NCBI GenBank assembly: GCA_000827325.1
Contig: KN832897.1
Coordinates: forward strand, 180,994 to 244,993
DNA: 64,000 nt
From: Oidiodendron maius Zn
Taxonomy: Eukaryota > Ascomycota > Leotiomycetes > Myxotrichaceae
Direction of reading: 5' to 3'
Shown here in pieces: positions 12,104 to 35,680 of the stretch. Within the stretch, counting starts at the first letter, position 1. Each line of letters opens with the position of its first letter. A program made the translations under genes and the position numbers. The notes below the pieces were generated by a model, which made no database searches, had not been told where the DNA came from, and saw only the letters and a list, made by a program, of their open reading frames with translations.

Positions 12104-12460
12104 ACGGATAGTATAAGCGTCATTTTACAGGCATTACAAGTCGCAGTATATCCAAATTGCTTATACATGAAGCTTGTTTGTTTTGTCTTCAGCATGAAGA
12201 AGAAACCGGTATTGTTACTCAGACTATGGGGACAGTCGATGGAAGGAGACTCTATTCTATGAAACTCATGTTGAAGGAATATCTGAGACTTGAACAAGTG
12301 CGCAATAGTCTCAGAAATTATTTGCGGCATGATATACTACCGCGGAGTACCGTATAATCTGGTTTATAAGTCCCCTCCTAGGAGAGGGTCGCTGTCCAGA
12401 CTTTTTTTTCGGCATTTGACTAAATCCGACCACACATTTCAGTTATTTACCGAATCCGAC

Positions 12461-12622
12461 TGTCAGGACGAAGGGAACGTGACCAAGTCACGTGACCTTC
12501 GTCACATATCAACCAAGAGAAGGAGATAGAGCAGAGTTTTTCTCCTTCAATCATCAAAATATAACAGACTACCCCTATACCAAGGTTTACCTGTTTCGGT
12601 GATCACCCCTGTGTTACCAACA
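12461..12622 (+). repeat. Putative 5' LTR of the Copia element
   Basis: The stretch starts TGTCAGGACGAAGG exactly where the inner inverted repeat ends and finishes at ...TTACCAACA, giving TGT...ACA ends about 420 bp upstream of the polyprotein. No matching 3' LTR exists in the window because the element is truncated, so the boundary rests on the termini alone. Confidence 0.45.
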
Positions 12623-13042
12623 CTGATCAGTGGTTGAATTCACACTCAGCCACAGAACAGCTAGGTATTCCTCAGAAGAGACAAGGCCTCGATATCGCTA
12701 TATCGACCTACCTTGTGCTGAAGGAAGAGAACTTCGGTATCGCTATATCGTAGTGAGACTTCCAAAGGCTTACGAATACCAGCAGTAGATTCATTCCGAG
12801 ACAGCTGGGACTACTAGGTTGCGTCTATCACGCAGAACAACCGCGTTCACGAAGAACTGGTCGAAAACTTGATGCCAGAAGTGTCAATGAGCATTCAAGT
12901 ACCAAAGTAACGTCAAGAACGTGCCCCCAAGATCCCTCAAGAACACGTCGAATTATTCCCTTTCCGAAACCTCACCCGAATACTCACCCGTCCTGTCACA
13001 TCTACCCCAGATAGCTCAAGATCCGACACCCACATCCGAATC

Positions 13043-15622: not shown

Positions 15623-16164
15623 TTTATTATATAGTTATAAAGAACCAAGGCTTTAGGTAAAATTAGGGCCAAAACTCAATATCTTAAGAACTTAGAAATA
15701 AATTTTCTTTAAACTCTTAATACTTATTATATATAAGCTTCTATCCAGCAATTTTAATTTTACTTAAAAATATTAAGAAATAGTTAAGTTATTATAATTT
15801 TAAAATTATAAAAGTTGGTTTTAGTAATTAGTTAATATATATAGTCGGATTCAGTAAATAACTGAAATGTGTGGTCGGGTTTAGTCAAATGCCCTTTTTT
15901 TTGGGATTAAAAGTCCCCCTTTTTATTAGTCCAATAAATGGCGCTATTCCTGAAAAGTAGGTGACGCGCCAGAATATAACTTGAATCGACGCGTATGATT
16001 GGTGGATAAGTGATTACTAAGCATTGACCCAAAATCTTATTTACAAGTCCCCTTTGCTATAAGCCCCCCCCCTAGAGAGAGTCATTTGTCTCGAACGGGT
16101 CACATAGGGGGGACTTATAAATCAGATTATACGGTAGTGGTATACCATCAAATTAGGTATAGCA

Positions 16165-19100
16165 CTAGTCAATTGCGGCCCAGTTACAAGACTGACTGTG
16201 CATACGATTTAGATACGCGTTGACAAATTTCTCATTGATTGACGGCGCAGGATAATCATCGCCCCCAAGGACATGCTCGCCAACTGGCAAACCCTTGAAC
16301 ATGGCAGTCGCAGTTTCATCTGTGTAGCAATCCAAGACGGCAGAGATGCGGGCAAGGGGACTCGTTGGATGCACAGTGGCATAGTCCAGTGCCCGTTGCT
16401 TCCACGCACCGAATGCTATCATCTCCTTGGGCTTTCCACCGCTAAGGTCGCCAATCAGCTTGAAAAATTCGGTGCAGGTTGGTGCACGCGAGCTCAAAAA
16501 GTCAAAGTCTCGGCCCAATCTGTGGAAATCAAGTGTCATGATGGCAACAATTGTCTTGGCCAGATAGTCGACAGGTAGTACAGCTGACATATCAGCATGT
16601 ACTAACGGGAACGCTCCCATCTCAAGGCTTCCGGTAATGAAGTTGTGCAAGAAGTCGCCGCGATCGAGCCGGAAGTGTCCAGTCGTCGTTGAGGCTGTGA
16701 CATAGGGTAAACGGTAAACAGCTGCCCTGGCGCCGCGCCAACGAGCCGCGGCCACTAACCTCTCAGCAATGTATTTTGAGGTCCCATAGCCGTATTCGAG
16801 GTCTCCATCTTTGAGGTCTAGGCCCATATGCTTGGGTAACGTGGAGATGGTGGATACAAGGTGGACTGCCTTGGCCAGACCGCGAGAGGCCAGGCGCAGA
16901 ATCTCGTGAGTGCTGACGATGTTGGGGCCGACATAGTCTTGTAATGGTCGCAGCCAGTCGACAAGAGCGCCAGAGTGACAAATGGCGTCCACCTGATGTG
17001 CCAAGTTGTCGAATACTTGATCGGTCATGCCGAGCAACGGTTGGGCTATGTCACCAACAATGGGCTTCATCAGTGACGCAAATTTGGGCTCCCAGAGACC
17101 ATATTCCTGCAGAGTACTAACCAGCCGCTGTCGTGCCTTGTCGATGCAGTGAGCGCGCACAAGACAGTGTGTAGTAATGCCCTGCTTGAGCAGCTCGTAC
17201 AAGATAAAGACACCAACAAATCCTGTAGCACCCGTGAGAAACACGGCCTTTGGGGGTATAGCCAAATTACTCGAAGAATTCTGAATTAGGTTGTCGAACA
17301 TGAAGCCGCTATCAAGACAGCCTTTGCGGACTGCTGTCATGTCAAACTGACTAGTAGATGTCACCACGATGGACGATGTAACCGTGTCCTGCAACTGGGA
17401 CAATAGGGACTGGCTGAGCGCCCTTATGTTTGGGTGAAGGAAAACAATGTTGACCGAGAGTGTCAGACCCGTCAATGTTGCCAGATGATTGCGCACCTGT
17501 ACCGCGGTCAACGAGTCGATTCCAATGTCTTTCAAGGGACGGTCAACCTCCACACCAAGCGGGTGCGTAAAGCCCAATGCCTTGGCAACTACTTGACGGA
17601 CCATGTTGAACACTATACCGACATGCTGCCCCGGTTCAGCTTCGCTCAGCACCTCGCGCAGGTGCCGGTGGCTGGAAGAGGCCTGGGTCACCGTACTGTC
17701 CTGGATGAGAAGCGAACCAAGCAATGGCGGTATACTGCCGCCCTGTTCCTCAAGGTAGGCCCGAAGCCGCTCCAAATCGAGGGCGGCAGCCATAGTTAGT
17801 GGACGACGGCTGGTTATAGCCTGCTTGAATAGCTCCAGACCCTCATCAGGTGGCAGAGGGTCAAGACCATACTGAGCGAGGTGAGAAAGGGTGGCTGGGC
17901 CAAGCCTGGACGCCATGCCGCCATTGCCTGCCCAGGTGCCATATGCCACCGAGGTGGCCGGTAAGCGTTGGGCGCGACGCAAGTGGGCCAGCGCATCAAG
18001 AAAGGTGTTGGATGCAGCATAGTTGGCAAGACCCGGCATGCCCATGACGCCAGAGATGGAAGAGAACATCATAAAGAGGTCCAGATCCATATCTCGAGTT
18101 GCTTGGTGCAGATTCCAAGCACCGTACACCTTGGGCGCAATCGTAGCCTCGCAGCGCTGCCATGTCATGGTAGGGAGAACACCCGAGTCTACGACGCCGG
18201 CGGCGTGGACTACGCCTCGCAGCGGCCGGTCTTTGTTGAATGTTGCCATGATCGAACTGACACTATCTGGATTGGCCACATCGCCGGTCATCACAGTGAC
18301 TCCGACGCCCAACTTATAAAGCTCGGCTACTAGTGCACCCGCGCCAGAAGCGTCCATACCACGGCGCGAGGTCAGTACTAAGTCGCAGACATTGTGATCA
18401 CTTGCCAGCCACCTTGCTACGCGCACTCCGAGATCCCCGAGGCCGCCTGTTATCAGCACTGCACCCCCCGGTCGCACGAGTCGATGCTTGGCTAGAATTG
18501 GCTTCGGTACTGGGTCAACGTGTTGCAACCGTGGGATAAGCACTTGATCCTGGCGCACAGCGCATTCGGGTTCGGCGTTGAGCATCAACGCTGATGGGAT
18601 ATGGGCTCCTGTTGTTTCCTGACCTAAGTCGACCAGGCGTAAGTGCAATTCTGGATGCTCGCTCCTGGCTGTCCGCATCAAACCCCATAGTAACGACCCA
18701 GGTCCGAGTCTCATGGCGCGGTCATCGAACTCATCACCAGTGCCAACCGCCTGGTGCGTTACCCATACTAGTGGTGGCATGAACTGAGTATGGGCGGCCG
18801 TTTGCAGCTGTGTCAGCGCCAATGTCATCACATGCTGTGTCTGCGATAGCACATCGGCATTCAAGTCCCACATGCATATCAGACCCTCCAGCTTCTCGGC
18901 ATGCTTGAGATGCTCGACTTGGACTAGTTGTAGACCGGCTCGTGACAGGGTGGCTGTGATACTCGCTGGCCACTTCGAATTACTGGCTGGGACTACAAGA
19001 CCCCAGGTCCCGCTAGGATGGACATTGTCCGTCTTGACTGGATGCCACACTACACTGAACTGGTTGCGCCTTTGATTGCCTTGGGGGCCACTGCGGGTGG

Positions 19101-22100
19101 TGTTGCCGATACTGGCCCCAGTACCGTTGGTGATACTGGTACCGTTGGTGATACTGGTACCGTTGGTGATACTGGTACCGTTGGTGATACTGATACCGTT
19201 GTTGATACTAGTACTGTTGTTGATACTGGTACCGTTGGTGATACTAGTACCGTTGCTGAGACTAGTAGAAGTACCCACCGCGTTTGGTTGCATGTTGAGA
19301 CCGTGACGAAGAAACTCGCGTTGGAAGGCATAGGTTGGCAGTTGCACACGCTGACAGCCAAACGGCTTAAAATAGGCATGCCAGTCGATAGGTACATGCC
19401 GCATATGTAAATGAGCAATACTGCGTTGAAGGATCAAGGAGCTGTCTTTGCAACGACCGAGAGATGGCAACCAGGCGACCGTTCCACTCTGGTCATGGTC
19501 TGCAAGGCACGTTGCACCCATGCCACAAAGCACTTGATCCGGTCCCAGTTCAAGGAAGACGTTGACACCTTGACGGGCCAACGTCTGGATGCCGTCACTA
19601 AAGCGGACTGGTTCACGTGCCTGCTTCACCCAATATTGCGCTTTGTCCAGCTGGCCCGCCTTGACCGGGTTGCCTTCTAGACTGCTGATGATGCTTATCT
19701 GTGGTGGATTGAATCGTACCGTCTCGGCGACGGCTCGAAAGTCTGCTAGCATGCCGTCCATATGACGCGAGTGAAAGGCATGTCCAACGACGAGCGTCTT
19801 GTTCTTGCGGCCTTGTCTGGCAAAATGGCCCGTTATACTTTTGACGGCATCCATGTTGCCAGATACGACCGTCTGCGTCGGTGTGTTATGGGCAGCGACA
19901 TCGACTTTGGCACCATAACCCAACTGCTCAACTGTTGTGCCTACCTCGGCGGCGCTGGCTTCGAGTGACACCATGCTGTGATCGCCAGATTGGGCCTGCA
20001 TTAAGCGGCCACGCGCTACAACTAATCGACAGGCATCAGGCAGGTCCAAAATGTCCGCTATATGAGCAGCCACGAGCTCGCCTAAGCTATGGCCTAGGAC
20101 AACGTCTGGCGTCACGCCCCAGCTCTGCCACAGCCGCCATAACGCTACTTCCAAAGCGAATATAGCAGGCTGAGCAAAGTCAGTACGGTCTAGTAATGTG
20201 GCGGCTGTGCTGCCAGGATCCGCCCACATGACATCAAGCAGCGGTACTTCTAACTCGGGGTCAAACTTGGCGGCGATCTCGCATATCGTTTCGCCAAAGA
20301 TGGGGTAGGCCTCACATAGGTCCTTGCCCATACCCGGCCACTGGCTGAATTGGCCAGTGAAGAGCATAGCCAGCCTCGGCGCCTTGGCAGCTTCGCTACT
20401 AGCAGGCAATGCGAGAATTTCCGGGTGGGCGTTCGAGCCCAGCTCCTCCAACAGCTTCAACAGCTCAGCCTTATCTCCAGCCATTAATACCAACCGCCTT
20501 CGGAAGTGACTGCGAGTAGTTGCTAGTGAGTAGGCTATGTCACCCAGATTGTCCTGGTTAACAGGGCTGCTGATGTGTCGATGAAGCTTCTCGGCCTGCA
20601 TGCGTAGAGCTGCGTCGGTATCGCCCGAGATGAGGAAGGGCAGGGTGTGAGGCAACCGAACTGCCGTCTTCACATTTTCAGTGATGATAACCTGCCTCGG
20701 TGGTTCTTGGATAATGACATGAGCATTTGTGCCACCGATGCCAAATGCACTAACACCAGCCCGGCGTAGCCGGGTCTCTTGTGGCAGCCACGGTTGTTTA
20801 CTCAACACCGGGATCATGTTGGCACGCTGCCAGTCTACCGCTGGAGTAGGCTTCGTAACGTGTAGCGTTTGCGGCTGAATGCTATGCTGTATGGCCAGCG
20901 TCACTTTTAGTAGGCCTACCAGCCCACTGGCAGCTTGAGTGTGGCCGATGTTGGACTTGGCCGCACCGATCAGGAGAGGCTCTCGATGGGCACGGCTGGG
21001 ACCAAACACCTCGGCCAGCGCCGTGGCTTCGATTGGATCGCCCAGTTTAGTAGCGGTGCCATGAGTTTCAATATAGTCTATGTCATCAGGCTGTAGTCTA
21101 GCTGCAGCTAGGGCCGTACGAATGAGTCGTTGCTGGGCAGGGCCGCTGGGCGCAGTTAAGCTGGCACTGCGGCCGTCATGGTTGACGGCGGTGCCGCGTA
21201 TCACGCCGTGGATACAATCACCATCGTGCTGAGCATCAGATAACCGCTTAAGTAGGACGACGACAGAGCCCTCGGACCATCCTGTGCCTTGCGTGTCTTC
21301 TGAAAACGACCGACAACGGCCATCTGGCGACATGCCCTGAAGCCGGGAGAATTCCACATGCAGACCAGGATTTAGCATCAGGCTTATCCCCCCAGATACG
21401 GCCATGTCGCATTCACCCTGACGCAGCGCAGTGCAGGCCAGGTGAGTTGTGACTAGCGAGGACGAGCAAGCAGTGTCTATCGTCATCGCTGGGCCTTGTA
21501 GGCCGAGTTGGTACGAGATACGGCCAGACATGGTGCCACCGGCCGAACCTGTCGTCGTGTATCCGTCGAGATCTGCCAAATCTCGAATGGCTCCTGGGTT
21601 GAGGCTGTGATGAGCTAAGATATTGCTGACTCCAATGAACACGCCAGTCTGGCTACCCCGTAGCTGTTCCACAGTATAGCCCGCACGCTCAAAAACTTCC
21701 CAACAAGTCTCGAGCAGCATATACTGCGAAGGATCGAGCTTGTGTGCCTCCCGTGGTGAGATGCCGAAGAAGGATATGTCAAAAGAGTTGATGGAAGGAA
21801 GGAATCCACCACGGCGGCAATACGATTCGCCTTGAGCGTTTGAGCTGGCATCTTCACTCCAACGGTCCTTGGGCGCGTCGGTGATGGCCTCACGACCGCC
21901 CTCAAGTAGTTCCCAAAAGTCCTCAGGAGTACTAATGCCACCAGGTAACCGACAAGCCATGGAGACAATAGCGATGTCTTGGTTACTGTCATTCGCACAA
22001 AATTGCTCACTGGCTTCAGGTTTCGGGTAAGCCACTTCGGGCGAGCCAGTCAGATATGCTGCTAATGTCTTGATGGTGTAGTGTTCAAAGAGCTTGGCCG

Positions 22101-23892
22101 CTGGAACTGGGCGGCCCAGCAGTCTCTCGAGCTCTTTATGGACGCGAACGACACGTAGCGAGTCCCCTCCAATTTCGAAGAAATTGTCTTTGATGCTGAC
22201 GCGGTCATGGCCAAGGACCCTCGACCAAATTAGGAGTATTTGACCTTCCAACTCAGTGGCGGGCATCATGGCGGCGGCCGTAGTCTGAAGTGCCGCCACT
22301 GGATCTGGGAGGGCTTTGCGATCAATTTTGCCACTCATCGATACCGGGAAAGCTTCCACTTCAACGAAAAAAGCCGGAACCATGTAAGCCGGCAGTCGCT
22401 CTACCAGCCAAGGACGTAACAGCTGGTCAACACGGTCAAGCGCGCCTAGCTTGGCTTCAAATTCTCCATTCCTGGGTGGCCTTGCCTTTCGCACACAATA
22501 GGCTACTAGTCGGTCATCACGGCTGACCACAACTGCCGCGGATATGTCATCGTGTGCGGTAATGGCTGCTTCGATGTCACCCAGCTCGATTCTGTTGCCT
22601 CGGATCTTGACCTGCCCATCCATACGGCCCATGTGGCTCACTTCTCCGGGCGCCGTGAAGCGAGCGACATCGCCGGTTCGGTACATCAGGCCAGGGTGAA
22701 AGGAGTTGTTGGGAAATCGAGCGCTGCTAAGATGGTTGTTGCCGCGATAGCCGCGTCCCACGCCCAGCCCTCCAATACACAGCTCGCCAGGAGAGCCGAG
22801 CGGAACTGGTGACATGTTCTCGTCCAGTATGTAGAGGTATGTGTTTGCGATGGGACCGCCGATTATCACATCATGGTCGCGGCACACCCTCCAAATACTC
22901 GAATACACACTTGCCTCTGTAACGCCGTACATATTCCACGTCATATCGCCGCAGTCCAGCAAGCGATCTGCCAGTGCTCGAGGCAGCGCTTCGCCGGCGC
23001 ACAAGATCTTATTAAGTCGAGGTTGGCCATTCCAGCCTGAATCGAGTAGCATTTGCCAGATTGCGGGTGTTCCCTGCATGATGGTGATTTGGTGGCGCTC
23101 CATAAGTCCGACAAGAGCAGCCATGTCAGTTAACTCCTGTCTTTGCGCGATGACTATGGTTGCTCCGCAGAAGAGCGGCAGAAACCAATCGACAACGGAC
23201 ATGTCGAAAGACACGGTGGTGATAGCAAGCAGCCGATCCGTTTCGCTGCATCCTGGTTCCTTCTGCATCGATAATAGGAGGTTTGTGAGACCTCCATGGG
23301 TAATCTCGACGCCCTTGGGCCGGCCAGTCGAGCCCGAGGTGTACATGACATACGCAAGATCGCCGCTCTCCACCACCACATCGCCGTTACTGCTATCAGA
23401 CGAGTCTAGGTTTATCGTGTGTAGCACCTCGTCGACGCTCAAGCAGCACACACTTTCTAGGGAGGTGAATGCCTGGAGTGTATTGGCACCAGTGAGGACT
23501 AGCTTCGGGCAAGCATTCTCCATCATGTGGCTGATGCGTTCTGCAGGCAAGGCCGGTTCAATAGGCACGTAAGCGGCACCTGTCTTCATGACGGCTAACA
23601 ATACCGCGACGAGTTCGACGCAGCGATCCAGCGCCACGCCGACAAGGTCGCCATTGCCGATTCCCCGCTGAATAAGGGCTCTGGCAAAACGGTTGGCAAA
23701 CAAATTGAGCTCTCCAAAAGTGAGTGTCGTGTCGCCACAGACTACAGCGACCTTGTTGCTGTGCTTGTCGATGATGGGCATGAGAAGCTCGTGTAGGCAC
23801 AATTGTAGTCTTGAGGAACCATCCATGTCGTCAACTCGGCACTCCTTGACAGTTGCCTGGTCCTGATTCTTTTCTGCTGCGATGGTATGCAT
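16165..23892 (-). CDS. NRPS-PKS hybrid, A-T-KS-AT-KR-T-R, SwnK-like, 2575 aa
   Basis: A single-exon megasynthase. Start is ATG 23890-23892; upstream in-frame codons lack an ATG. Domains by protein residue: adenylation ~35-530 (VMYTSGSTGRPKG; YRTGD; specificity region SFDMSVVDW), carrier protein with Ser near 578 (FFEIGGDSL), ketosynthase ~640-1065 (DTACSSS near 807, THGTATKLGDP, SNIGHTQAASG: complete Cys-His-His), acyltransferase with GHSLG near 1268, ketoreductase with GGLGDLG near 1816, second carrier with GIDSL near 2124, and a C-terminal reductase with GATGFVGV near 2222 and a YGTSK Tyr/Lys pair for NAD(P)H-dependent release. No DH, ER or C domain. This order is that of SwnK, which extends pipecolate by one malonyl unit in swainsonine biosynthesis. 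Substrate here is inferred only. The AT-KR linker carries an expanded tandem repeat. It is divergent from the dioxygenase gene. Confidence 0.93.
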   Translation of the reverse strand: MHTIAAEKNQDQATVKECRVDDMDGSSRLQLCLHELLMPIIDKHSNKVAVVCGDTTLTFGELNLFANRFARALIQRGIGNGDLVGVALDRCVELVAVLLAVMKTGAAYVPIEPALPAERISHMMENACPKLVLTGANTLQAFTSLESVCCLSVDEVLHTINLDSSDSSNGDVVVESGDLAYVMYTSGSTGRPKGVEITHGGLTNLLLSMQKEPGCSETDRLLAITTVSFDMSVVDWFLPLFCGATIVIAQRQELTDMAALVGLMERHQITIMQGTPAIWQMLLDSGWNGQPRLNKILCAGEALPRALADRLLDCGDMTWNMYGVTEASVYSSIWRVCRDHDVIIGGPIANTYLYILDENMSPVPLGSPGELCIGGLGVGRGYRGNNHLSSARFPNNSFHPGLMYRTGDVARFTAPGEVSHMGRMDGQVKIRGNRIELGDIEAAITAHDDISAAVVVSRDDRLVAYCVRKARPPRNGEFEAKLGALDRVDQLLRPWLVERLPAYMVPAFFVEVEAFPVSMSGKIDRKALPDPVAALQTTAAAMMPATELEGQILLIWSRVLGHDRVSIKDNFFEIGGDSLRVVRVHKELERLLGRPVPAAKLFEHYTIKTLAAYLTGSPEVAYPKPEASEQFCANDSNQDIAIVSMACRLPGGISTPEDFWELLEGGREAITDAPKDRWSEDASSNAQGESYCRRGGFLPSINSFDISFFGISPREAHKLDPSQYMLLETCWEVFERAGYTVEQLRGSQTGVFIGVSNILAHHSLNPGAIRDLADLDGYTTTGSAGGTMSGRISYQLGLQGPAMTIDTACSSSLVTTHLACTALRQGECDMAVSGGISLMLNPGLHVEFSRLQGMSPDGRCRSFSEDTQGTGWSEGSVVVLLKRLSDAQHDGDCIHGVIRGTAVNHDGRSASLTAPSGPAQQRLIRTALAAARLQPDDIDYIETHGTATKLGDPIEATALAEVFGPSRAHREPLLIGAAKSNIGHTQAASGLVGLLKVTLAIQHSIQPQTLHVTKPTPAVDWQRANMIPVLSKQPWLPQETRLRRAGVSAFGIGGTNAHVIIQEPPRQVIITENVKTAVRLPHTLPFLISGDTDAALRMQAEKLHRHISSPVNQDNLGDIAYSLATTRSHFRRRLVLMAGDKAELLKLLEELGSNAHPEILALPASSEAAKAPRLAMLFTGQFSQWPGMGKDLCEAYPIFGETICEIAAKFDPELEVPLLDVMWADPGSTAATLLDRTDFAQPAIFALEVALWRLWQSWGVTPDVVLGHSLGELVAAHIADILDLPDACRLVVARGRLMQAQSGDHSMVSLEASAAEVGTTVEQLGYGAKVDVAAHNTPTQTVVSGNMDAVKSITGHFARQGRKNKTLVVGHAFHSRHMDGMLADFRAVAETVRFNPPQISIISSLEGNPVKAGQLDKAQYWVKQAREPVRFSDGIQTLARQGVNVFLELGPDQVLCGMGATCLADHDQSGTVAWLPSLGRCKDSSLILQRSIAHLHMRHVPIDWHAYFKPFGCQRVQLPTYAFQREFLRHGLNMQPNAVGTSTSLSNGTSITNGTSINNSTSINNGISITNGTSITNGTSITNGTSITNGTGASIGNTTRSGPQGNQRRNQFSVVWHPVKTDNVHPSGTWGLVVPASNSKWPASITATLSRAGLQLVQVEHLKHAEKLEGLICMWDLNADVLSQTQHVMTLALTQLQTAAHTQFMPPLVWVTHQAVGTGDEFDDRAMRLGPGSLLWGLMRTARSEHPELHLRLVDLGQETTGAHIPSALMLNAEPECAVRQDQVLIPRLQHVDPVPKPILAKHRLVRPGGAVLITGGLGDLGVRVARWLASDHNVCDLVLTSRRGMDASGAGALVAELYKLGVGVTVMTGDVANPDSVSSIMATFNKDRPLRGVVHAAGVVDSGVLPTMTWQRCEATIAPKVYGAWNLHQATRDMDLDLFMMFSSISGVMGMPGLANYAASNTFLDALAHLRRAQRLPATSVAYGTWAGNGGMASRLGPATLSHLAQYGLDPLPPDEGLELFKQAITSRRPLTMAAALDLERLRAYLEEQGGSIPPLLGSLLIQDSTVTQASSSHRHLREVLSEAEPGQHVGIVFNMVRQVVAKALGFTHPLGVEVDRPLKDIGIDSLTAVQVRNHLATLTGLTLSVNIVFLHPNIRALSQSLLSQLQDTVTSSIVVTSTSQFDMTAVRKGCLDSGFMFDNLIQNSSSNLAIPPKAVFLTGATGFVGVFILYELLKQGITTHCLVRAHCIDKARQRLVSTLQEYGLWEPKFASLMKPIVGDIAQPLLGMTDQVFDNLAHQVDAICHSGALVDWLRPLQDYVGPNIVSTHEILRLASRGLAKAVHLVSTISTLPKHMGLDLKDGDLEYGYGTSKYIAERLVAAARWRGARAAVYRLPYVTASTTTGHFRLDRGDFLHNFITGSLEMGAFPLVHADMSAVLPVDYLAKTIVAIMTLDFHRLGRDFDFLSSRAPTCTEFFKLIGDLSGGKPKEMIAFGAWKQRALDYATVHPTSPLARISAVLDCYTDETATAMFKGLPVGEHVLGGDDYPAPSINEKFVNAYLNRMHSQSCNWAAID
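19112..19270. repeat. In-frame 18-bp minisatellite in the AT-KR linker of the NRPS-PKS
   Basis: About eight tandem units of an 18-base sequence (plus strand GGTGATACTGGTACCGTT and variants) encode repeats of NGTSIT/NNSTSI on the minus strand. The unit length is a multiple of three, so copy changes keep the frame. The near-identical central units show recent expansion. The linker lies between the acyltransferase and ketoreductase and is rich in Asn-Gly-Thr/Ser. Confidence 0.92.
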
Positions 23893-24317
23893 CTCTCCTG
23901 GTAATAACCCTGGTAAAACCAATAGTCATTGAGCTTGTTAGATTCAAGTGCTACATAGTACGCGGGTTGATTGCCCTCTATGTACTCTTGCCTCCAAAGC
24001 CCCGAATTAATGAATGAATGAATGAATCAATGTCAATTACGCATAGCTAAGCCCAAAAGGGGCTCGGACTACCTACCCACTTAGGCACTACAGGGTAGTC
24101 CGATCCACAGCCGCAGCCTGCAGCTTGGGCACTGAGCACATGCATGTAAGCGACCATCATCAACGTCGGTCACACATGACTTGATTCCTTCACGTACAAA
24201 ACATCCCACACCGCTTGAGGACAGAACACTCTCACATCAGCCTAATTTCAGCTTGAGTTCACAATATCCGCATATCATTTCTTTCGGTGCTGTTGAATAA
24301 TCTGTTTCATTTTCACC
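23893..24317. promoter_or_regulatory. Shared divergent promoter of the NRPS-PKS and the dioxygenase
   Basis: The 425-bp gap separates the start codons of two oppositely oriented cluster genes, so it very likely drives both. It contains an AATG tetranucleotide run near 24,007-24,030, the CGG-containing inverted repeat listed separately, and pyrimidine-rich sequence before the dioxygenase ATG (TTTCATTTTCACCATG, a good fungal start context). Confidence 0.7.
24064..24103. promoter_or_regulatory. 10-bp perfect inverted repeat TCGGACTACC / GGTAGTCCGA
   Basis: Two perfect 10-base arms with a 20-base spacer lie in the middle of the divergent promoter. CGG half-sites in inverted orientation are typical binding sites of fungal Zn2Cys6 regulators, so this is a candidate pathway-regulator site. 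No regulator gene is visible in the window and I see no second copy of the full repeat in the other cluster promoters. Confidence 0.4.
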
Positions 24318-25175
24318 ATGTCCACAACTGTAACCATGCTACAGCAAGTTAGCCCTTCTGAAGGTCATGACGCTGTCCTTAAAGCCCTTCGTGAGGATGG
24401 GGGTGTCATTATCAAGGGCCTTTTCACAAAGGACCAAGTTCATCGTCTAAATGAAGAGTTGCAGCCTGCTATGGACAAGCTCGGGTTGGGCTCAAAGCAG
24501 TCAGAAGAATGGCTCAAGGAGTTTCACGGTGACAATACAAAACGCTTGAATGGCTTGGTCGCAGTGAGCAAGACTTTTCGCGATGAATTTCTAGAGTGCG
24601 ATTTGATCCACAAACTGTGCGAAGAGATCTACCTGAAAGATGCCGGTGGATACTGGATGAACTCTGCTCAACTCATCGATATCGGCCCAGGGAGCAAGGC
24701 CCAACCACTGCATCGGGACCAATGGCAATTCCCTATATTCACGCATTGCGGCCCTAATGCGCCTGAGGCTAGCTGCAACTTCCTAGTGGCATTGACCGAG
24801 TTCACCGACGAGAACGGCGCAACCAGACTCATACCTGGAAGCCACAAGTGGGATGACTTTTCGCAAAATGGAACTCCAGAAGACACCATTCCAGCCGAGA
24901 TGGAGGTGGGTGACGCCTGCTTCATTACTGGAAAGGTGGTGCATGGAGGGGGTGCCAATAGGACCAAGGACTTCACGAGAAGAGGCGTCGCTATTGTTTT
25001 CCAATGCTCTTACCTAACTCCTGAAGAGGCATATCCATTTATTGTTGACAAGGAAATTGCCAGAACGCTCAGCCCACGAGGCCAGCGTATGATTGGTTTC
25101 CGATCCCAATTCCTGAAGGACAGCCCAGGAGTGTGGAAGACAGATTATGGTGAGGTGGATGAAGTTTACTGTTAG
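24318..25175 (+). CDS. Fe(II)/2-oxoglutarate dioxygenase, PhyH family (SwnH-like), 285 aa
   Basis: Phytanoyl-CoA-dioxygenase-type oxygenases hydroxylate or oxidise small molecules using Fe(II), O2 and 2-oxoglutarate. The intronless frame has the expected length (285 aa) and the full metal site: His132 and Asp134 in PLHRDQW and His209 in VVHGGG. Arg221/222 (RRGVAIVF) is the likely 2-oxoglutarate carboxylate binder. GATRLIPGSHKWDD and GDACFITGKVVH are further family features. It is transcribed away from the NRPS-PKS across a 425-bp shared promoter and converges on the NmrA reductase. In swainsonine clusters SwnH1 and SwnH2 of this family hydroxylate the indolizidine core. By context this enzyme probably hydroxylates the product of the hybrid, which is inference. 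Confidence 0.9.
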   Translation: MSTTVTMLQQVSPSEGHDAVLKALREDGGVIIKGLFTKDQVHRLNEELQPAMDKLGLGSKQSEEWLKEFHGDNTKRLNGLVAVSKTFRDEFLECDLIHKLCEEIYLKDAGGYWMNSAQLIDIGPGSKAQPLHRDQWQFPIFTHCGPNAPEASCNFLVALTEFTDENGATRLIPGSHKWDDFSQNGTPEDTIPAEMEVGDACFITGKVVHGGGANRTKDFTRRGVAIVFQCSYLTPEEAYPFIVDKEIARTLSPRGQRMIGFRSQFLKDSPGVWKTDYGEVDEVYC

Positions 25176-25596
25176 AGGGAGACAGAGTCTCAAGTATCTC
25201 TGTGCTTATTGGACATCGATGATCTATCAGGTCCTCCAGATCCGGCAGAGTATGAACGATTGGAGAGAGAAACTTGAAAGCCACCACAAAGGCAGAAGAC
25301 ATAAGCGAGACAAGAAATTAGGCCTCAGTCACTTACTGAGACTAACACTACTAGAGTCCAATATAATCGCGCGTAGAAACATACGTATAACGTACTAGAG
25401 CTTAATGAAAGACAAATAAATGAATTCACGCCAAGAAGTACGTCTACCCTTGAATATTGAACAAGGTTCGCGCTGAATAACTGACTCTACTCTAGCTTGT
25501 CAAGTAGTTTGCCCTTGTATAGGTATGATAGATCTCCTTACAGTGATTATAAGGCTAATGAGTGTCTAGATAAGAAATTCATCTTTTAGTGCCTGC
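25176..25596. other. Convergent 3' intergenic region
   Basis: About 420 bp between the stop codons of the dioxygenase (plus) and the reductase (minus). No gene or repeat is recognised; it should hold the 3' untranslated regions of both. Confidence 0.6.
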
Positions 25597-26656
25597 TCAC
25601 TGGATAGAAACCGGCTTCCATGCCTCCTCTATCAAATCCTCGATACGCTTTGGCGCGGGCGCCTTTCCCTCAAATGCTTTGACAAGATCAAGATGCTCAC
25701 CCAACTTGCCCAAATCATATCCGCCAAGTGCTACAGCTGCTTCAAGATCGGCGACTATCCCTCGGATTCCCTGAGGAAATCGGTCAGGATAGTCCTTCGC
25801 TATGGTTACGTTGATTGGTAGATCGATTGTGTCATGCTTGAGCAATTTCTCGACTGGCTGATAGCGCACTTGGAGCTTACGACCCAGGCTCTTCTCGTAG
25901 AGCCTGACGAGATCATTCATTGAGACAGTACTTGTCACCGTTGTCATAATCCGGGGCCACTTGTCCAGCTCAAGCGCCAGCACTACATACCGCGCAGCAT
26001 CCGTCGTAAATGTCATGCTCATCCTCCCTTCTCCGTCCCCTGGCAGCACCGCCTGTCCACTTGCCGGGTCGACGCAGAAGCACAGCGGACGCAATGAGCT
26101 TGCCACCTGTGGCATACCGAAATAGTCCATGAACATACCCGGGTAAATATATGCATACTCGAGCATGCTTGTCTTGGCCAGCTCTTGCCGAGCGGTGAGA
26201 TGAAACCTCTTTTCCGGGTAAGGGAGGACGTCGTCGCCAACATTGTACTCGACATTGAATTCGGAGGGGACGAAACGCCTGACGCAAAGGCACTTATCGG
26301 CGGCACGGATAAGTCGCAGCTGAGCATCGCATACGGAATCAGAGTCCATAGGGAAAGCACAGATAACGACGTTGGCATTTTTTGCTATAAGCTGCTCAGC
26401 CAGAGAATCCTCAGACGAGTAGTCGGTCTGAATTATAGGGAGGTATCCTTTGCCAGTCAATGGTGAGATGCGCTCCGAGTTCAAGTTGTTGTCCACAATC
26501 TGCATTTACATGGTCAATATCGTGAGATAGACGATGGAACGGCTTTCGTACCTTTCTTGACATGATGTAAACCTCATACTTGCCACTTTCAAAGAGGGCG
26601 TCCGTGATGGGGCGACCCAGGTCGCCCAAGCCGCCAGCGACTACGACAACGGCCAT
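25597..26656 (-). CDS. NmrA / isoflavone-reductase-like NAD(P)-dependent reductase (SwnN/SwnR-like), 335 aa
   Basis: A two-exon gene: exon 1 26552-26656, intron 26500-26551 (52 nt, GTACGA...ATGCAG), exon 2 25597-26499. Splicing joins MSRK to IVDNN in frame. The N-terminus VVVAGGLGDLGRPI is the Rossmann dinucleotide-binding loop of atypical short-chain dehydrogenases. NVVICAFPMDSD, then RFVPSEFNVEY and the AYIYPGMFMDYFG segment match phenylcoumaran-benzylic-ether/isoflavone reductase and NmrA-like proteins. The start ATG at 26656 has a strong context (CACCATGG); an upstream in-frame Met exists at 26668. Family enzymes reduce C=C or C=N bonds with NADPH. SwnN and SwnR of swainsonine clusters are of this type and act on cyclic imine/iminium intermediates. 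By context, a similar imine reduction is the best guess. Confidence 0.88.
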
Positions 26657-26758
26657 GGTGAAATACAAGATACCACAGTTATATGGTAGGCTCTTGTTTG
26701 AAAATGTGCATAGGATTGCGCTCTGACCTTAGAGGGCCTTTATTGCGTAAATACGCTA

Positions 26759-26780
26759 GTCTAGGAGCATCCACCTAGAC
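26759..26780. promoter_or_regulatory. 7-bp inverted repeat GTCTAGG-N8-CCTAGAC upstream of the NmrA reductase
   Basis: A perfect short palindrome about 105-125 bp upstream of the reductase start codon. Its place suits a transcription-factor site, but arms of this length can occur by chance and no second copy was found. Confidence 0.25.
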
Positions 26781-27156
26781 CGGCTATAAACTCTTCCTTG
26801 CTTATTAAACCCACCTTCATTAAGGTCTCTCCAACTATCCCCTCAACCGGCAGCCATGATCCACTCTAGAGGGGCGTTTGACTAGTCAAGTGCATTCACT
26901 AGCTTGACATATTTTATAAGAGACGTGAGCAAATATGCAAGCTGAGCACTGGCGTGTCAACTCTACTACCTCAACCTTACATAGCTCTACCTAACAGATG
27001 GAAGATAACCCAAATGCCTTATCATAGGACCTTTATTCAAGACACTATGGCAGAAATAATATGTCTAGCTTTCAATCCCCATAGTATCATTCGAACTTTT
27101 GTATTCCTCCTCGGACCTCGCTTGTCACATTGATACGTAAATTTCGCGTCACTATA

Positions 27157-27380
27157 CGGAGGTCACCGCAAAAAGTCCTGAGAGCAGGGGTTTCGCTTAC
27201 TTGTTACCCAGCAACCAGGGTCACTGTAAAATTAGTGGTCTATAGGCTTGAGCACCCTAATTTTACAGCATGCGCAGCCTGTAGTAATCACTAACAGACT
27301 CCATCCGAGCACTATAATCGTTGCTCTGCTAGACCCTAGTTGATAACCCCTGCTCTCAGGACTTTTTGCGGTGACCTCCG
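27157..27380. mobile_element. Short MITE with ~37-bp terminal inverted repeats and TA duplication
   Basis: The left end CGGAGGTCACCGCAAAAAGT and continuing CCTGAGAGCAGGGGTT is repeated in inverse at the right end (AACCCCTGCTCTCAGG...CCTCCG). The element is 224 bp, flanked by TA (27155-27156, 27381-27382), and has no coding capacity. It lies in the divergent promoter region between the NmrA reductase and the A-T-C NRPS. Confidence 0.9.
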
Positions 27381-27382
27381 TA

Positions 27383-28144
27383 CGAGTGCCGCATTGCTGC
27401 TTAACTAGAACAGCGAGGTCCTGTTTCAACTGTGCAGCTACGGCGTATACCCTATCGTAACGTTACATCGTCGTCCGTTGAGGTCTCCATCCTTGCTAGA
27501 GATGTGCACGCTTTTGTAAGACGAAAAGTTAAAAATAAGATATTACAAAGTTGCCGCTCTTTTACACCGCGTGATAGCCCGCTATATCTAAAAGTGTTAG
27601 AATGGCACCGCACGGATGCCCGTAAGGAAGTATAGGCATGTACTAAAGCCAGGTAGTGTAAAGGCACGAGTAGATAAGTGGCCAACCCATACATTCTAAA
27701 GTAGCTAAACCTTTGACTATTCTCAATGACAATGGTTCTACTAGATAGGAAGCCATTAGGTTAACGTTAGCAGGAATCATTGGTTACATGCATTCTAGAA
27801 TTCCACTTTTGCATAAGACGCGTTAGCGTCTACCTAAGCATGTGCAGGGGTACTGGCTTAGCTCCGGATCTAAAGTAGGTCTCCATTTTCGTAAAATCTA
27901 TACGTGGTAAAGGACGAGTGGATGTCCGTAGTAGTAGCTGCCTCGGCCCGCCCTACACTAACCTTGCTACCCTGCAGGGACGGTCTATAACAGAAGATAG
28001 CTGATCTATATCCATCTTCTAGAACACTGCCAGGCGTAATCTTCAGATCCTAGATTCCTACAACCTCCCGTAACAAATTGGCTTGTCCTTGTAGCCGTTT
28101 CACTCAACCTAGAACGCACACCGTCAAGAACAACTTCTGAGACA
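27383..28144. other. Upstream region of the A-T-C NRPS
   Basis: No supportable gene. The reading frames at 27,432-27,694 lie on both strands of the same DNA without motifs. The last 150 bp are unique and should hold the NRPS promoter. The start context is GAGACAATGGGA. Confidence 0.5.
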
Positions 28145-31100
28145 ATGGGATTAACCGATTCCGATGATGGTCAGTTTGCAAAATTCCAAGGAGTAAACTA
28201 TACAGTGCCAGAGGCTTCTACTTCACTGATCCACGAACTCGTACATGATCAGGCAGAAGCGCATCCCATCGCCGAAGCCGTAGTCTCTTGGGACGGCACT
28301 CTTAGCTATGAAGAGCTCGACTCCGCATCCACTCGTCTCACGGGTTTTCTTATCGCAGAGGGTGTTAAACCGGAAACCATTGTACCTCTTCTCTTCGAGA
28401 AATCTAGCTGGATAGTAGTCGGCATGTTAGCCACCATGAAAGCCGGCGGCGCCTTCATGACCCTAGATGTTTCCCAGCCAGAGTCACGACTTCGCTCCAT
28501 CATAGCAGCCAGTGGCGCAAAGGTTGCCCTTTCCTCGGCCGGCTGCAATGGGCTCTGCTCTTCGCTAGTCCCCAGCGCGTTTTCTGTCACAGAGCAGAGT
28601 ATTGCGGGACTGAACATGCCCGTCCGTCAATGGCCAGCAGGGTTAAGAAATGCCGCCTATGTGATGGCTACCTCGGGAAGCACCGGTAGCCCCAAGCTCG
28701 TCGTCACAGAGCATTCGCAGTTGTCGTCCTTTGTAGCGCACCTCACACGGCCGCTTGGGTTCACAGAACGGACACGCACCTTCCAGTTCGCGTCGTACGC
28801 TTTTGACCCCATCATTGGGGATATCTTCCTTACCCTTGCTGCTGGCGGCACTGTGTGCATCCCCTCAGAAGATCAACGCAAGGGCGATATTGCTGGCGCT
28901 ATGAACAGTATGAGAGTCAACCTTGCAAAATTCACACCCTCACTCGTCAACTCCTTGACAGACTTAACACCGGCTAATGTTCCAACCCTTAAGACGCTCA
29001 TCCTTGGGGGCGAGACTACACCTACTACCGTTCTTCAAAAATGGGCAGGCAAGGTTGACCTTAAGCTCATATACGGGTCAACTGAGTGCACCATCAGCTG
29101 TGTGGTACCAGATGCGAGCACAGGCACCGTCGTACCCGGGGAAATCGGCCGCCCACTTGGGAGTCGAGCGTGGGTCGTCGAATCATCAAGCGATGGCTCC
29201 GACCTCAGATTGGTTACGGAGGGTGAGGTCGGAGAGCTTGTCCTCGAAGGCCCGTTGGTTGCTCGGGCATATATGAACAGCCCCTCCGAAAGTGAGTCCA
29301 AGTTCATTAAGCGTCCGGCGCATCGGATGTATCGAACTGGGGATCTGGTACGTTGTTTAGATGATGGGCGGCTAGTCTACGTGGGTAGAATCGACAACCA
29401 GGTCAAGATCCGCGGGCAGAGGTTGGAGCTAGAAGAAGTCGAGGAACATGTACGCCGGTCGCTCACTTTTCTCGACATACGTATCAAAAATGTCTTGGTG
29501 GACGCAGCAGTGCCACTTGGTGCAACGAGTAAGCAACTAGTAGCATTGCTGAGTCTCGAGACCAATAACCCGTTCGGCTCCCTCCTCTGCGATGACGAGA
29601 AGGGCGGTGCGACCGTCAGTTTCTCTCCAAAGACAATGCATAACTTTGCTAACCTCGTGTCCCTACTCGAGGCAAAGATGAAGTCGATGGTTCCCTCTTA
29701 CATGATACCGTCTCTATGGGTTCCTATAGACGAGATGCCGCATACCTTGTCCCGAAAGCGGGACCGGCAACGGCTTCGACGGGCCATTGAAAGCCTCCCG
29801 GCGAAGTGGCTGGCTGCGTTCTCCCAGGCACATGATGGCCTACCCGGTGACGAAGAAACTGGAAGTGTCGTAACTACAGAGAAGGAGAACTTGCTTCGGA
29901 GACTCTGGTCCGATGTGTTGGGTTTGGACCTCAGATCAATCCGACTTGGAGATAACTTCTTCCATCTCGGAGGCAACTCTCTTCTAGTCATGAGGCTGAT
30001 TTCCATGGCAAGAAGAGAGGGCCAAATTCTTGTTGCTGATGATGTTTTTGCACACCCCGTCCTACAAAGTCTGGCATTTAAGCTTATCTCTGCGGAAAAG
30101 TCTGCTGATATAGCCCCTTTCGCTTTACTGGAGCCTTCTCATAGGCTCTCTATTAAGCAGGAGGCAGCTCAACAGTGCGGAGTCAATCTGGATGATATAG
30201 AAGACATATTACCATTGTCCTCAATGCAAGAACATTATATTTTTAGCTATCCCGAGCTAGGTCGGGATAGTGCAGGACCCTGGGACTGGCAGCAGCAGAT
30301 CGTCTTCTTACTGCCCGAGTCGTTTAACATCCAGCTCTTCAAATCCGTTTGGAATGACGCGGTAAAGCGTCACCCTCAGCTTCGTACTCGCGTCGTGCAA
30401 ACCTCCTGTGGCGTATTTCAGGCCGCCTTGCGGAATGAAGCTGGACCAGCTTGGCGAGATATTGACGACCTGGACCACTATGTTCGCTGGGACCGGGAAG
30501 CTATTATGTCATTTGGTGACGAACTTTTGCGACTAGCAATTACAAAATCGATACAACGCTGCTACTTCGTGCTCACCATGCAGCATCTCATCTACGATGC
30601 TTATTCTCGTGACATGCTCTTCAAGGAGCTGGAAGTGGCATATCTTCGTCAAAGTCCTCTAGAGATGGAGCCACCAAAGATGAGCAAGTTCATAAGCTAT
30701 ATCAACGGAGCAGACCGTCGGCTGGGGACTGAATTTTGGACATCATATCTTAAAGGGTCATCGACTAAGGCTCTCCTGTCGGCGCCCATCAGCAGTCCAG
30801 TGGGGGAACTGAATACTCACACATGGACTCTTGAGAAACCGCAGCTGCCGTTCTTGAATTATACATTGGCAACGATCATCGAGGCTAGCGTGGCGCTGGC
30901 TATCGCACGGATTCTGGGCTGCAGAGATGTTATCTTTTACTCTGACCGAGCGGGCCGCAACTTACCGATTGCTGGCATCCAAGACTTGATGGCACCGGCG
31001 ACGATACTTCTCCCGTTACGCGTTCACATTGACCCGCAGCAAACCGTTCACGACCTGCTCTGTACTCACCAGGCGGCGAATACCGCGATGATGCCCTACG

Positions 31101-31438
31101 AGTACCTGGAATTCACCGAACTCAGGAAAATGGATCATCTCAAGGGCATGCTGGGGCACTCTCTCAACATTAACATCAATCCTTACACTACCCTCGGCAA
31201 AATTGGCGCCACTATGGGTCTAATGGTGGTGGACGAACACGAACGATGGGGTGATCCTTTCACTGTTGATGTATCTGTACGCGAGGACGAGCTTAAATTC
31301 GCTATACACTTTGATGAGAGCTTCATCTCTGAAGCTGTAGTGACTAACCTGGTAAGGAATACCAAGGAAACGTTTCGGCTACTTTCAACCGTATACATGA
31401 CCCCACAAATGTCTGTGGGCGATGTTCTACAAAGCTGA
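28145..31438 (+). CDS. Monomodular NRPS, A-T-C, 1097 aa
   Basis: A single-exon nonribosomal peptide synthetase with the condensation domain at the C-terminus. Adenylation spans residues ~25-560: ATSGSTGSPKLVVTE near 175, FASYAFDPIIGDIF for the start of the specificity region, YGSTE, MYRTGDLVR and IRGQRLELEEVEEHV. The A10 motif is altered (TLSRKRDRQRL, with the Lys kept but the usual Gly before it replaced). The carrier Ser is near 611 (FFHLGGNSLL). The condensation domain begins with ILPLSSMQEHYIF near 690; its HHxxxDG motif reads QHLIYDA near 812, keeping the second, catalytic His and the Asp but not the first His or the Gly. Fungal A-T-C enzymes such as the fumiquinazoline alanyl module load one amino acid and transfer it to a separately made amine. 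A similar acylation or aminoacylation of the hybrid's product is inferred. Confidence 0.92.
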   Translation: MGLTDSDDGQFAKFQGVNYTVPEASTSLIHELVHDQAEAHPIAEAVVSWDGTLSYEELDSASTRLTGFLIAEGVKPETIVPLLFEKSSWIVVGMLATMKAGGAFMTLDVSQPESRLRSIIAASGAKVALSSAGCNGLCSSLVPSAFSVTEQSIAGLNMPVRQWPAGLRNAAYVMATSGSTGSPKLVVTEHSQLSSFVAHLTRPLGFTERTRTFQFASYAFDPIIGDIFLTLAAGGTVCIPSEDQRKGDIAGAMNSMRVNLAKFTPSLVNSLTDLTPANVPTLKTLILGGETTPTTVLQKWAGKVDLKLIYGSTECTISCVVPDASTGTVVPGEIGRPLGSRAWVVESSSDGSDLRLVTEGEVGELVLEGPLVARAYMNSPSESESKFIKRPAHRMYRTGDLVRCLDDGRLVYVGRIDNQVKIRGQRLELEEVEEHVRRSLTFLDIRIKNVLVDAAVPLGATSKQLVALLSLETNNPFGSLLCDDEKGGATVSFSPKTMHNFANLVSLLEAKMKSMVPSYMIPSLWVPIDEMPHTLSRKRDRQRLRRAIESLPAKWLAAFSQAHDGLPGDEETGSVVTTEKENLLRRLWSDVLGLDLRSIRLGDNFFHLGGNSLLVMRLISMARREGQILVADDVFAHPVLQSLAFKLISAEKSADIAPFALLEPSHRLSIKQEAAQQCGVNLDDIEDILPLSSMQEHYIFSYPELGRDSAGPWDWQQQIVFLLPESFNIQLFKSVWNDAVKRHPQLRTRVVQTSCGVFQAALRNEAGPAWRDIDDLDHYVRWDREAIMSFGDELLRLAITKSIQRCYFVLTMQHLIYDAYSRDMLFKELEVAYLRQSPLEMEPPKMSKFISYINGADRRLGTEFWTSYLKGSSTKALLSAPISSPVGELNTHTWTLEKPQLPFLNYTLATIIEASVALAIARILGCRDVIFYSDRAGRNLPIAGIQDLMAPATILLPLRVHIDPQQTVHDLLCTHQAANTAMMPYEYLEFTELRKMDHLKGMLGHSLNININPYTTLGKIGATMGLMVVDEHERWGDPFTVDVSVREDELKFAIHFDESFISEAVVTNLVRNTKETFRLLSTVYMTPQMSVGDVLQS

Positions 31439-31534
31439 ACCCTAATGGGCAACGCGAGCGGTTTCCGCAGACCACTCGTTTTGATCTGCAGTTGCGTATT
31501 AATTCTAGGGATAGTCTCAGTTCTTTGAAGGGGA

Positions 31535-32060
31535 GGTTTACGAAGCCATGCATGAAACAAACCAGGAGGGAAGCATTATTGGAGAGGCGACGAAGGATAT
31601 GGACCGGCATCGATGGATTCTTAGCCACCTTTGCTTCGTACAGCAAGAAGAAGATTGCCATGACACATCCAAAGACGATTAGACAGATCACCTTTGCCGA
31701 ATGCCAGCTACTGACAACGCCTCCAAAGTTGAGTCCAAGTAGCGTCATCAAGCTTAATCCGAGCATAGTTATCGTGCCGAACCAATCGATCGCCTGAATC
31801 CCCTTCGGGAAGAAAGTTCGAGGATATTCAACGCGAAGGCTAAAACACAATACGAGAAACGACAATGCAGAACATGGCAGATTGATCCACCAATTCCAGT
31901 GCCAAGTGACATATTCTGTTAATGCGAACTCCGAGCAGTGTACCGACATCACTAGCTAACCCCCATACCACACCCGTCAGTCCCAAGTAGAATCCGCGAT
32001 ATTTGCCCAAAAAATCGTTGTAAGTATATCTGTTGTATAAGGGTTCCTAGGAAAGAGGAT
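31535..32060 (-). pseudogene. Relic of an MFS drug:H+ antiporter (DHA14-like)
   Basis: The minus strand encodes a mid-protein stretch of a 14-helix multidrug antiporter: RGFYLGLTGVVWG upstream (followed by a stop near 31,960), then in another frame TWHWNWWINLPCSALSFLVL, QAIDWFGTITMLGLSLMTLL and NPSMPVHILRRLSNNASLLV. It needs at least one frameshift and one stop to be read through, and both ends are missing. It abuts the 3' end of the NRPS in convergent orientation. It may be the remnant of a former cluster transporter. Confidence 0.75.
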
Positions 32061-33241: not shown

Positions 33242-33374
33242 TATAATATATATTTAATCTATAGTTTAATCTTATTCTTTAAAATATCTTCCTTTATTTA
33301 TCTCTAGTATATTATATTTACTTTAAATAAAGACTAATAATAGCTTTATAGAATAATAAAATAATAATCTAATA

Positions 33375-35228: not shown

Positions 35229-35230
35229 TA

Positions 35231-35680
35231 TTAAACTCTATAACTATTAAAACTATTCTCTATATAAAATGTTTTTATTCTAATATAGATTTCTTATTAT
35301 TATAATAGCTAAATTAGATCTTATCTAAATTAGATTTTATTCTATATAAAGAAGCTTACTATTTTTACTATTACCCTTCTATTTCTTTACTTAATTATCT
35401 ACTGTTTCAGAGCCTTAGTATATAGAGTATATATTACTAGTTTATTAATATCTATTAGTTTACTAAAAGAGCAACTATTACTAATCTATAATTACAACTC
35501 TTAAACTGACTCTATATCTCCTTAAGCTTCTAAGTTTTTCTATTTCTGGCTTTTGTTGTCTCCTCTCTATCTCTATATAATAGATCCTATAGATTAGTAT
35601 TGTTAGTAGACTGGCTTGAAGGCTATTCTCCAAGTGTTCAGTGTCCTATCTTTAGCGGCTGAAGCGGCGCCTACTATTCT
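35231..35680. other. AT-rich spacer between Fot1 element and LINE
   Basis: No coding or named repeat is recognised. The strong AT bias suggests degraded repeat DNA. Confidence 0.5.

What the first reader, a model, noticed from the sequence alone, without database searches (positions are those of the whole stretch)
16165..31438. SwnK-type hybrid with dioxygenase and NmrA reductase, extended by an A-T-C NRPS: a candidate new indolizidine-like pathway
The domain order A-T-KS-AT-KR-T-R, one PhyH dioxygenase and one NmrA reductase are adjacent, as in fungal swainsonine clusters. However, only one dioxygenase and one reductase are present, the aminotransferase nearby is a fragment, and a separate A-T-C NRPS stands next to them. 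This suggests a related cyclic-amine core that is then acylated or peptidylated rather than swainsonine itself.
Basis: partly seen in the sequence, partly recalled or inferred. Interest (0 to 1): 0.88.

Follow-up and report, generated by a model that had tools for sequence, protein, structure and literature searches.

The report
SwnK-paralogue alkaloid cluster with aminoacyl-transferase NRPS
A fungal genome carries an intact four-gene cluster, a distant cousin of the one that makes the alkaloid swainsonine, that probably builds a small ring-shaped amino alcohol and then attaches an amino acid to it; the product is unknown, so it is a good target for finding a new alkaloid.

Summary
Four intact adjacent genes are confirmed: a hybrid NRPS-PKS (16165-23892, minus; A-T-KS-AT-KR-T-R), an Fe(II)/2-oxoglutarate dioxygenase (24318-25175, plus), an NmrA reductase (25597-26656, minus) and a single-module A-T-C NRPS (28145-31438, plus). 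The hybrid has SwnK's architecture but is not SwnK: it is 54% identical to a named SwnK and lies outside the SwnK group with full support in three trees. The dioxygenase resembles EasH, not SwnH1/SwnH2, and no SwnH orthologue was found in the genome. So this is not a swainsonine cluster. In other fungi, 30 of 99 hybrid records share an exact contig length with a close dioxygenase homologue and 7 with an A-T-C NRPS (6 with both); in Thyridium curvatum the three locus tags fall within four numbers. The NRPS carries QHLIYDAYS, fitting the QHxxxDxxS motif of AneB, which esterifies a free hydroxyl with an amino acid. Best reading: a cyclic amino alcohol is made, oxidised and aminoacylated. Ring type, amino acids and every chemical step are inferred. 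New variant of a known kind.

The parts
16165..23892 (-). Hybrid NRPS-PKS, 2575 aa, A-T-KS-AT-KR-T-R; SwnK paralogue
   Evidence: Pfam; closest homologue 95% (P0001), named SwnK of a Chaetothyriaceae species 54%; trees; catalytic residues; start codon
24318..25175 (+). Fe(II)/2-oxoglutarate dioxygenase (PhyH), EasH-like, with HRD at residue 132 and VVHGGG at 207
25597..26656 (-). NmrA-like / isoflavone-reductase-like reductase, 335 aa, exons 26656-26552 and 26499-25597
   Evidence: splice; PF05368 E 8e-17; nearest PDB entry phenylcoumaran benzylic ether reductase 1qyc E 1e-13
28145..31438 (+). Single-module NRPS A-T-C, 1097 aa; pocket letters DPGKIGIIS; C-domain motif QHLIYDAYS at residues 813-821
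   Evidence: Pfam; homologues; code and motif; the C domain's PDB matches include the terminal C domain of TqaA
23893..24317 (.). Intergenic region between the divergently transcribed hybrid and dioxygenase genes; possible shared promoter (inferred from orientation only)
   Evidence: coordinates

Best explanation
An intact, product-orphan alkaloid cluster of the SwnK-paralogue type, extended by an AneB-like amino-acid transferase. Step 1 (inferred from domains): the hybrid loads one amino acid, adds one malonyl unit, reduces the beta-ketone to a hydroxyl (KR present, no DH) and releases the chain as an aldehyde (R domain). The aldehyde closes on the amine to a hydroxylated cyclic imine or iminium: pyrroline from a primary amino acid, pyrrolizidine from proline, indolizidine from pipecolate. 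Step 2: the NmrA reductase reduces the imine or iminium, the kind of role proposed for SwnN/SwnR in swainsonine. Step 3: the EasH-like dioxygenase hydroxylates or otherwise oxidises the ring. Step 4: the A-T-C NRPS activates a second amino acid and its C domain transfers it to a hydroxyl of the free alkaloid, as AneB does for a sesquiterpene alcohol. Shown: genes, domains, motifs, shared contigs in other fungi, and that it is not SWN. Inferred: every chemical step and their order.
For: Domains and catalytic residues. Separate from SwnK with support 1.0 in A, KS and whole-protein trees. Equal contig lengths of hybrid and dioxygenase in 30 of 99 hybrid records and of hybrid and A-T-C NRPS in 7. 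Locus tags E0L32_010785/010786/010788 in Thyridium curvatum. QHLIYDAYS fits the AneB motif QHxxxDxxS, whose His794 and Asp798 are needed for ester formation (PMC10720950).
Against: No product, expression or enzyme data. AneB itself was not available, so the comparison rests on a motif and domain order. The amino acid taken by either A domain is unknown. Whether the NmrA gene is linked in relatives was not tested. The linked NRPSs fall into two groups, 57-74% and 42-48% identical to the window's.
Confidence: 0.5

Rival explanations
1. The A-T-C protein is an upstream module working in trans: A-T-C followed by the hybrid's A-T-KS-AT-KR-T-R reads as one assembly line, giving a dipeptidyl-polyketide aldehyde, as LPSB hands lysergic acid to LPSA in ergot alkaloids.
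For: Domain orders fit end to end. The single-module A-T-C protein LPSB is described as such a donor (PMC8902786, passages).
Against: No clear N-terminal docking stretch: 25-32 residues lie before the A domain in the nine clade relatives and three further linked hybrids, against a median of 26 (quartiles 26 and 30) in the other aligned hybrids; the NRPS ends 22 residues after its Pfam C match. The C motif is of the AneB type; LPSB's own motif was not seen. 24 of 30 hybrid-dioxygenase pairs show no such partner.
Confidence: 0.2
2. The core is a monocyclic pyrrolidine from a primary amino acid, and the A-T-C NRPS forms an amide with the ring nitrogen rather than an ester.
For: The A-domain pocket (DMVQLAMVY) differs from that of SwnK at six of nine positions when read from motifs (DMLQIGVYG) and at five, one a gap, when read from the alignment. 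A single-module NRPS can form an amide (DrcB, PMC10720950, passage).
Against: Pocket letters do not exclude proline or pipecolate; the C motif is the one reported for ester formation.
Confidence: 0.2
3. A diverged swainsonine or slaframine cluster that has lost genes.
For: Same architecture; the hybrid is slightly closer to Slafractonia SwnK-like protein 1 (58%) than to a named SwnK (54%).
Against: SwnK-like protein 1 sits in another clade; no SwnH orthologue was found in the genome (best matches 29-33% to a SwnH2 segment and 34-37% to a SwnH1 segment); hybrid and dioxygenase recur together in other fungi.
Confidence: 0.05
4. Chance neighbours: the A-T-C NRPS makes its own small compound.
For: 8 of 15 NRPS homologues on contigs over 50 kb have no listed hybrid on the same contig.
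Confidence: 0.05

Closest known systems
SwnK / SWN swainsonine cluster
   Same: Hybrid domain order A-T-KS-AT-KR-T-R; a PhyH-type dioxygenase and an NmrA-type reductase nearby
   Different: Hybrid outside the SwnK clade (54% identity to a named SwnK); no SwnH1/SwnH2 orthologue found; different dioxygenase type; extra A-T-C NRPS; different A-domain pocket
Slafractonia leguminicola SwnK paralogues and fungal hybrids named nonribosomal peptide synthetase 7 (NPS7/PKS24)
   Same: SwnK-type hybrids of unproven product outside the SwnK clade
AneB, ThmA, FlvI single-module NRPSs
   Same: A-T-C order and a QHxxxDxxS motif in the C domain (reported for AneB)
   Different: Those act in terpene pathways; this one is linked to a SwnK-like hybrid
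EasH and related fungal dioxygenases (DhiD, PrhA, AndA)
   Same: Dioxygenase sequence (E 1e-63 for EasH)
   Different: No ergot or meroterpenoid gene was seen among the window ORFs scanned

Membership tests
SWN swainsonine cluster | SwnK-type domain order A-T-KS-AT-KR-T-R | tested here: met
SWN swainsonine cluster | SwnK orthologue (orthologues share more than 70% identity, PMC5473758) | tested here: not met
   54% to a named SwnK; SwnK clade separate with support 1.0 in three trees
SWN swainsonine cluster | SwnH2 orthologue | tested here: not met
   A SwnH2 segment (279 aa) finds four places in the genome at 28-33%; the window dioxygenase hits SwnH2 at 8e-19 but EasH at 1e-63
SWN swainsonine cluster | SwnH1 orthologue | tested here: not met
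   A SwnH1 segment (130 aa only) finds the same four places at 34-37%; no threshold for orthology was calibrated
SWN swainsonine cluster | SwnN and SwnR reductases | tested here: inconclusive
   An NmrA-type reductase is present; no SwnN/SwnR reference sequence was compared
NPS7/PKS24-type SwnK-paralogue hybrids | SwnK architecture among the fungal SwnK-like hybrids but outside the SwnK clade | tested here: met
   that some relatives are called nonribosomal peptide synthetase 7 comes from source names; Cochliobolus NPS7 itself was not compared
AneB-type single-module NRPS | A-T-C order | tested here: met
AneB-type single-module NRPS | QHxxxDxxS motif in the C domain | tested here: met
   QHLIYDAYS at 813-821; strict QHxxxDxxS in 15 of the 17 closest homologues P0121-P0137, the exceptions being P0130 (last S is A) and P0136 (first Q is H)
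AneB-type single-module NRPS | Sequence relationship to AneB | not tested
   No AneB, ThmA or FlvI sequence was available
AneB-type single-module NRPS | Aminoacyl ester formation | not testable with these tools
   needs an enzyme assay

The most novel reading that the evidence does not exclude
Probability: 0.4. Interest if true: 0.65.

Novelty: new variant of a known kind. Interest (0 to 1): 0.45.

Why it matters
One survey counted 502 fungal NRPS-PKS hybrids, of which five had known functions (PMC9606254, passage). This report ties a large group of SwnK-like hybrids to a conserved dioxygenase and, in part of it, to a transferase whose likely mechanism is known. That turns an orphan family into a testable pathway and gives concrete candidates, unlike SWN, for asking what else SwnK-like enzymes make besides swainsonine.

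Tried and rejected
Swainsonine identity: rejected on the trees and on the SwnH searches. One PhyH protein elsewhere in the genome (L034, C11) has SwnH2 as its best PDB match, but only at 5e-16, next to SptF at 9e-16, and 28%; I do not take it as an orthologue. Of 18 PhyH matches in the genome, only the window's protein and L034 were compared with the PDB. Aminotransferase as a cluster gene: rejected, it is a 108-residue fragment beyond a copia-like remnant. Docking between NRPS and hybrid: looked for an N-terminal extension, found none clear. Predicting the amino acids from pocket letters: the NRPS pocket keeps Lys at position 278 in all 16 homologues of P0121-P0137 with a readable code, which recalls Asp/Asn-type pockets, but that is memory, not a test; the hybrid pocket suggests nothing firm. 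The nine pocket positions are recalled and were placed by motifs; for SwnK the motif and alignment readings disagree at the last two positions. A first monophyly test of the SwnK group returned False for A and KS after rooting on it; a root-free split test then recovered it alone with support 1.0. The KS tree does not recover the ten-member window clade: Thyridium falls outside and nine members group at 0.995, whereas the A and whole-protein trees recover it at 1.0. LTRs for the copia-like remnant: none of 60 nt or more found. Structure prediction was not run. Neighbourhoods of relatives were not fetched: the collections that could be scanned hold prokaryote or viral contigs, and the metagenome cap was 0. 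Linkage therefore rests on equal contig lengths, organism names and locus tags.

Rows dropped: 17 of 120 hybrid homologues were left out of the alignment by length (2950 aa or more; mostly enzymes of about 4000 aa, several from actinobacteria). For the linkage table I entered contig lengths for 99 of 120 hybrid, 43 of 120 NRPS and 86 of 120 dioxygenase records. Each search listed only its best 120, so linkage counts are lower bounds. In one search hybrids on contigs of at least 30 kb were counted: 27 of 60 dioxygenase-linked in the window's larger clade, 0 of 12 in the other clades (2 SwnK, 5 SwnK-like-1, 5 rest); Fisher p 0.0025, not corrected for relatedness. Only one of the six SwnK-clade sequences bears the name SwnK as a deposited name (P0110); the other five were put there by 76-82% identity to it.

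Full report
What is there. The window is the right end of a 244,993-base contig (C28:180994-244993) of a 45.9-Mb fungal genome in 58 contigs. Between a copia-like remnant (12911-15622; read as such by eye, its one Pfam match is below the family cut-off) and a piece of a TRI12-type transporter (31344-31952) lie four intact genes in two divergent pairs: hybrid (-) and dioxygenase (+), then NmrA reductase (-) and A-T-C NRPS (+). The hybrid is one frame with A-T-KS-AT-KR-T-R and no DH match. The A-domain Asp, both T-domain Ser, KS Cys and two His, AT Ser, KR Ser and Tyr, and R-domain Tyr and Lys are kept in 102-104 of 104 aligned sequences, the misses being gaps. The AT carries HAFHS (its first His in 94 of 104), a motif that by memory marks malonyl-CoA use. 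No second SwnK-type hybrid was found in the genome: the next best match is 35% over the KS-AT part alone.

Is it SwnK? No. A protein search lists relatives from 95% (unnamed) through Pseudomassariella vexata (73%) and Thyridium curvatum (65%) to Slafractonia SwnK-like protein 1 (58%) and the SwnK of a Chaetothyriaceae species (54%). SwnK orthologues share more than 70% with each other (PMC5473758, outline and Results part 1 of 2). Five further sequences here are 76-82% identical to that named SwnK, and I treat these six as the SwnK clade. They are separated from the window hybrid with support 1.0 in the A, KS and whole-protein trees. In the whole-protein and A trees the window sits in a ten-member clade with support 1.0, including Thyridium and Coniochaeta; in the KS tree Thyridium falls outside and nine group at 0.995. 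The pocket letters, at positions recalled from the literature and placed by motifs, are DMVQLAMVY for the window, DMLQIGVYG for SwnK (DMLQIGV-Y by alignment) and DILQLGMVW for SwnK-like protein 1.

The dioxygenase. Against the PDB it matches EasH at 1e-63 and DhiD at 1e-58, but SwnH1 and SwnH2 at only 4e-19 and 8e-19. Segments of SwnH2 (279 aa) and SwnH1 (130 aa) searched against the whole genome each find the same four places, at 28-33% and 34-37%; the window's own dioxygenase is one of them. I conclude that the genome holds no SwnH orthologue that these searches can see. One of the four, L034, has SwnH2 as its best PDB match, but weakly (5e-16).

Linkage in other fungi. The database gives no neighbourhoods, so I matched contig lengths between searches. 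Of 99 hybrid records with a contig length, 30 share that exact length with a dioxygenase record and 7 with an A-T-C NRPS record; 6 match both. By the names, both partners name the same organism in 22 of the 30 and 4 of the 7; the rest are unnamed. Locus tags agree: Thyridium curvatum 010785 (NRPS), 010786 (dioxygenase), 010788 (hybrid); Pestalotiopsis fici 07789 and 07791; Ophiocordyceps australis 2029 and 2032. On contigs of at least 30 kb, 27 of 60 hybrids of the window's larger clade are dioxygenase-linked against 0 of 12 in the other clades. In the six triples the dioxygenase is the most conserved of the three genes, 76-89% identical to the window copy. Against the pairing: of 15 NRPS homologues of at least 42% identity on contigs over 50 kb (one of them, P0155, without a Pfam A domain), 8 have no listed hybrid of equal contig length, and Podospora didyma has the two on contigs of different length (my count).

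The A-T-C NRPS. Its 17 closest homologues (P0121-P0137) keep DPGK at the start of the pocket letters and Ser at the last position in all 16 with a readable code, and a QHLIYDAYS-like motif in the C domain; 15 of 17 fit QHxxxDxxS strictly. AneB has QHxxxDxxS, and its His794 and Asp798 are required for ester formation between proline and a free terpenoid alcohol; the first Gln is not (PMC10720950, abstract, passages and one section). The C domain's PDB matches are bacterial C domains and the terminal C domain of fungal TqaA. A second linked group (two Coniochaeta, FL0016) is only 42-48% identical, with different pocket letters but the same kind of motif.

Most likely working. One amino acid plus one malonyl unit, ketone reduced, chain released as aldehyde and closed to a hydroxylated cyclic imine; NmrA reduction; dioxygenase oxidation; transfer of a second amino acid to a hydroxyl. 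Every chemical step is inference from domains and from swainsonine and AneB precedents. The in-trans assembly-line reading is the main rival.

Known or new. SwnK-like hybrids outside SWN are known: NPS7/PKS24 was described as a bacterial gene transfer whose product remained to be found (PMC3226686, passages); [quoted passage not shown] fici, with no function in the passages I saw (PMC4320822); Slafractonia's two paralogues are suspected in slaframine synthesis, which is yet to be studied (PMC11052177, passages; PMC5473758). The SWN surveys I looked at deal with SWN clusters (PMC9030584, Results part 1 of 2; PMC8403587, passages). In the listings of ten paper searches and in the passages I opened, I saw no description of this hybrid with this dioxygenase or with an A-T-C NRPS; the library lacks most subscription journals.

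Noticed in passing
27155-27382: A MITE-like element: perfect 38-nt inverted repeats 152 nt apart, between the NmrA and NRPS genes.
   Followed up: no
33370-35233: A DDE-type transposon with 52-nt terminal inverted repeats, 96% complementary, and a DDE_1 match inside.
   Followed up: partly
36232-40579: Remains of a LINE-like element on the minus strand: an endonuclease match above cut-off and a reverse transcriptase match below it.
   Followed up: partly
12911-15622: Copia-like gag-pol remnant (by eye; one Pfam match below cut-off) with no direct repeats of 60 nt or more in 10500-16400.
   Followed up: partly
16165-23892, AT-KR linker: The linker carries a short tandem peptide repeat (like SITNGT) that differs in the 95% identical relative P0001.
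   Followed up: no
11105-12100: A 204-aa stretch that by eye resembles the neighbouring ABC transporter (no Pfam match) and an aminotransferase fragment lie side by side as gene debris.
   Followed up: partly
46000-54000 and 62000-64000: AT-rich blocks (GC 0.28-0.37), the second at the contig end; no telomere-like repeats seen in the last 500 bases.
   Followed up: no
2018-3964: An ATP-grasp protein gene near a multi-exon ABC transporter at 5682-10625.
   Followed up: no
L018 and L030 / G000:C46:16280-17101: A 52% identical paralogue of the window dioxygenase, near a likely zinc-cluster regulator gene (by eye); the hybrid search lists no match on that contig.
   Followed up: partly
P0065, P0067, P0095 and similar records: Actinobacterial megasynthases of about 4000 aa are 60-65% identical over about 40% of the hybrid and carry extra DH, ER and in many cases methyltransferase matches.
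   Followed up: no
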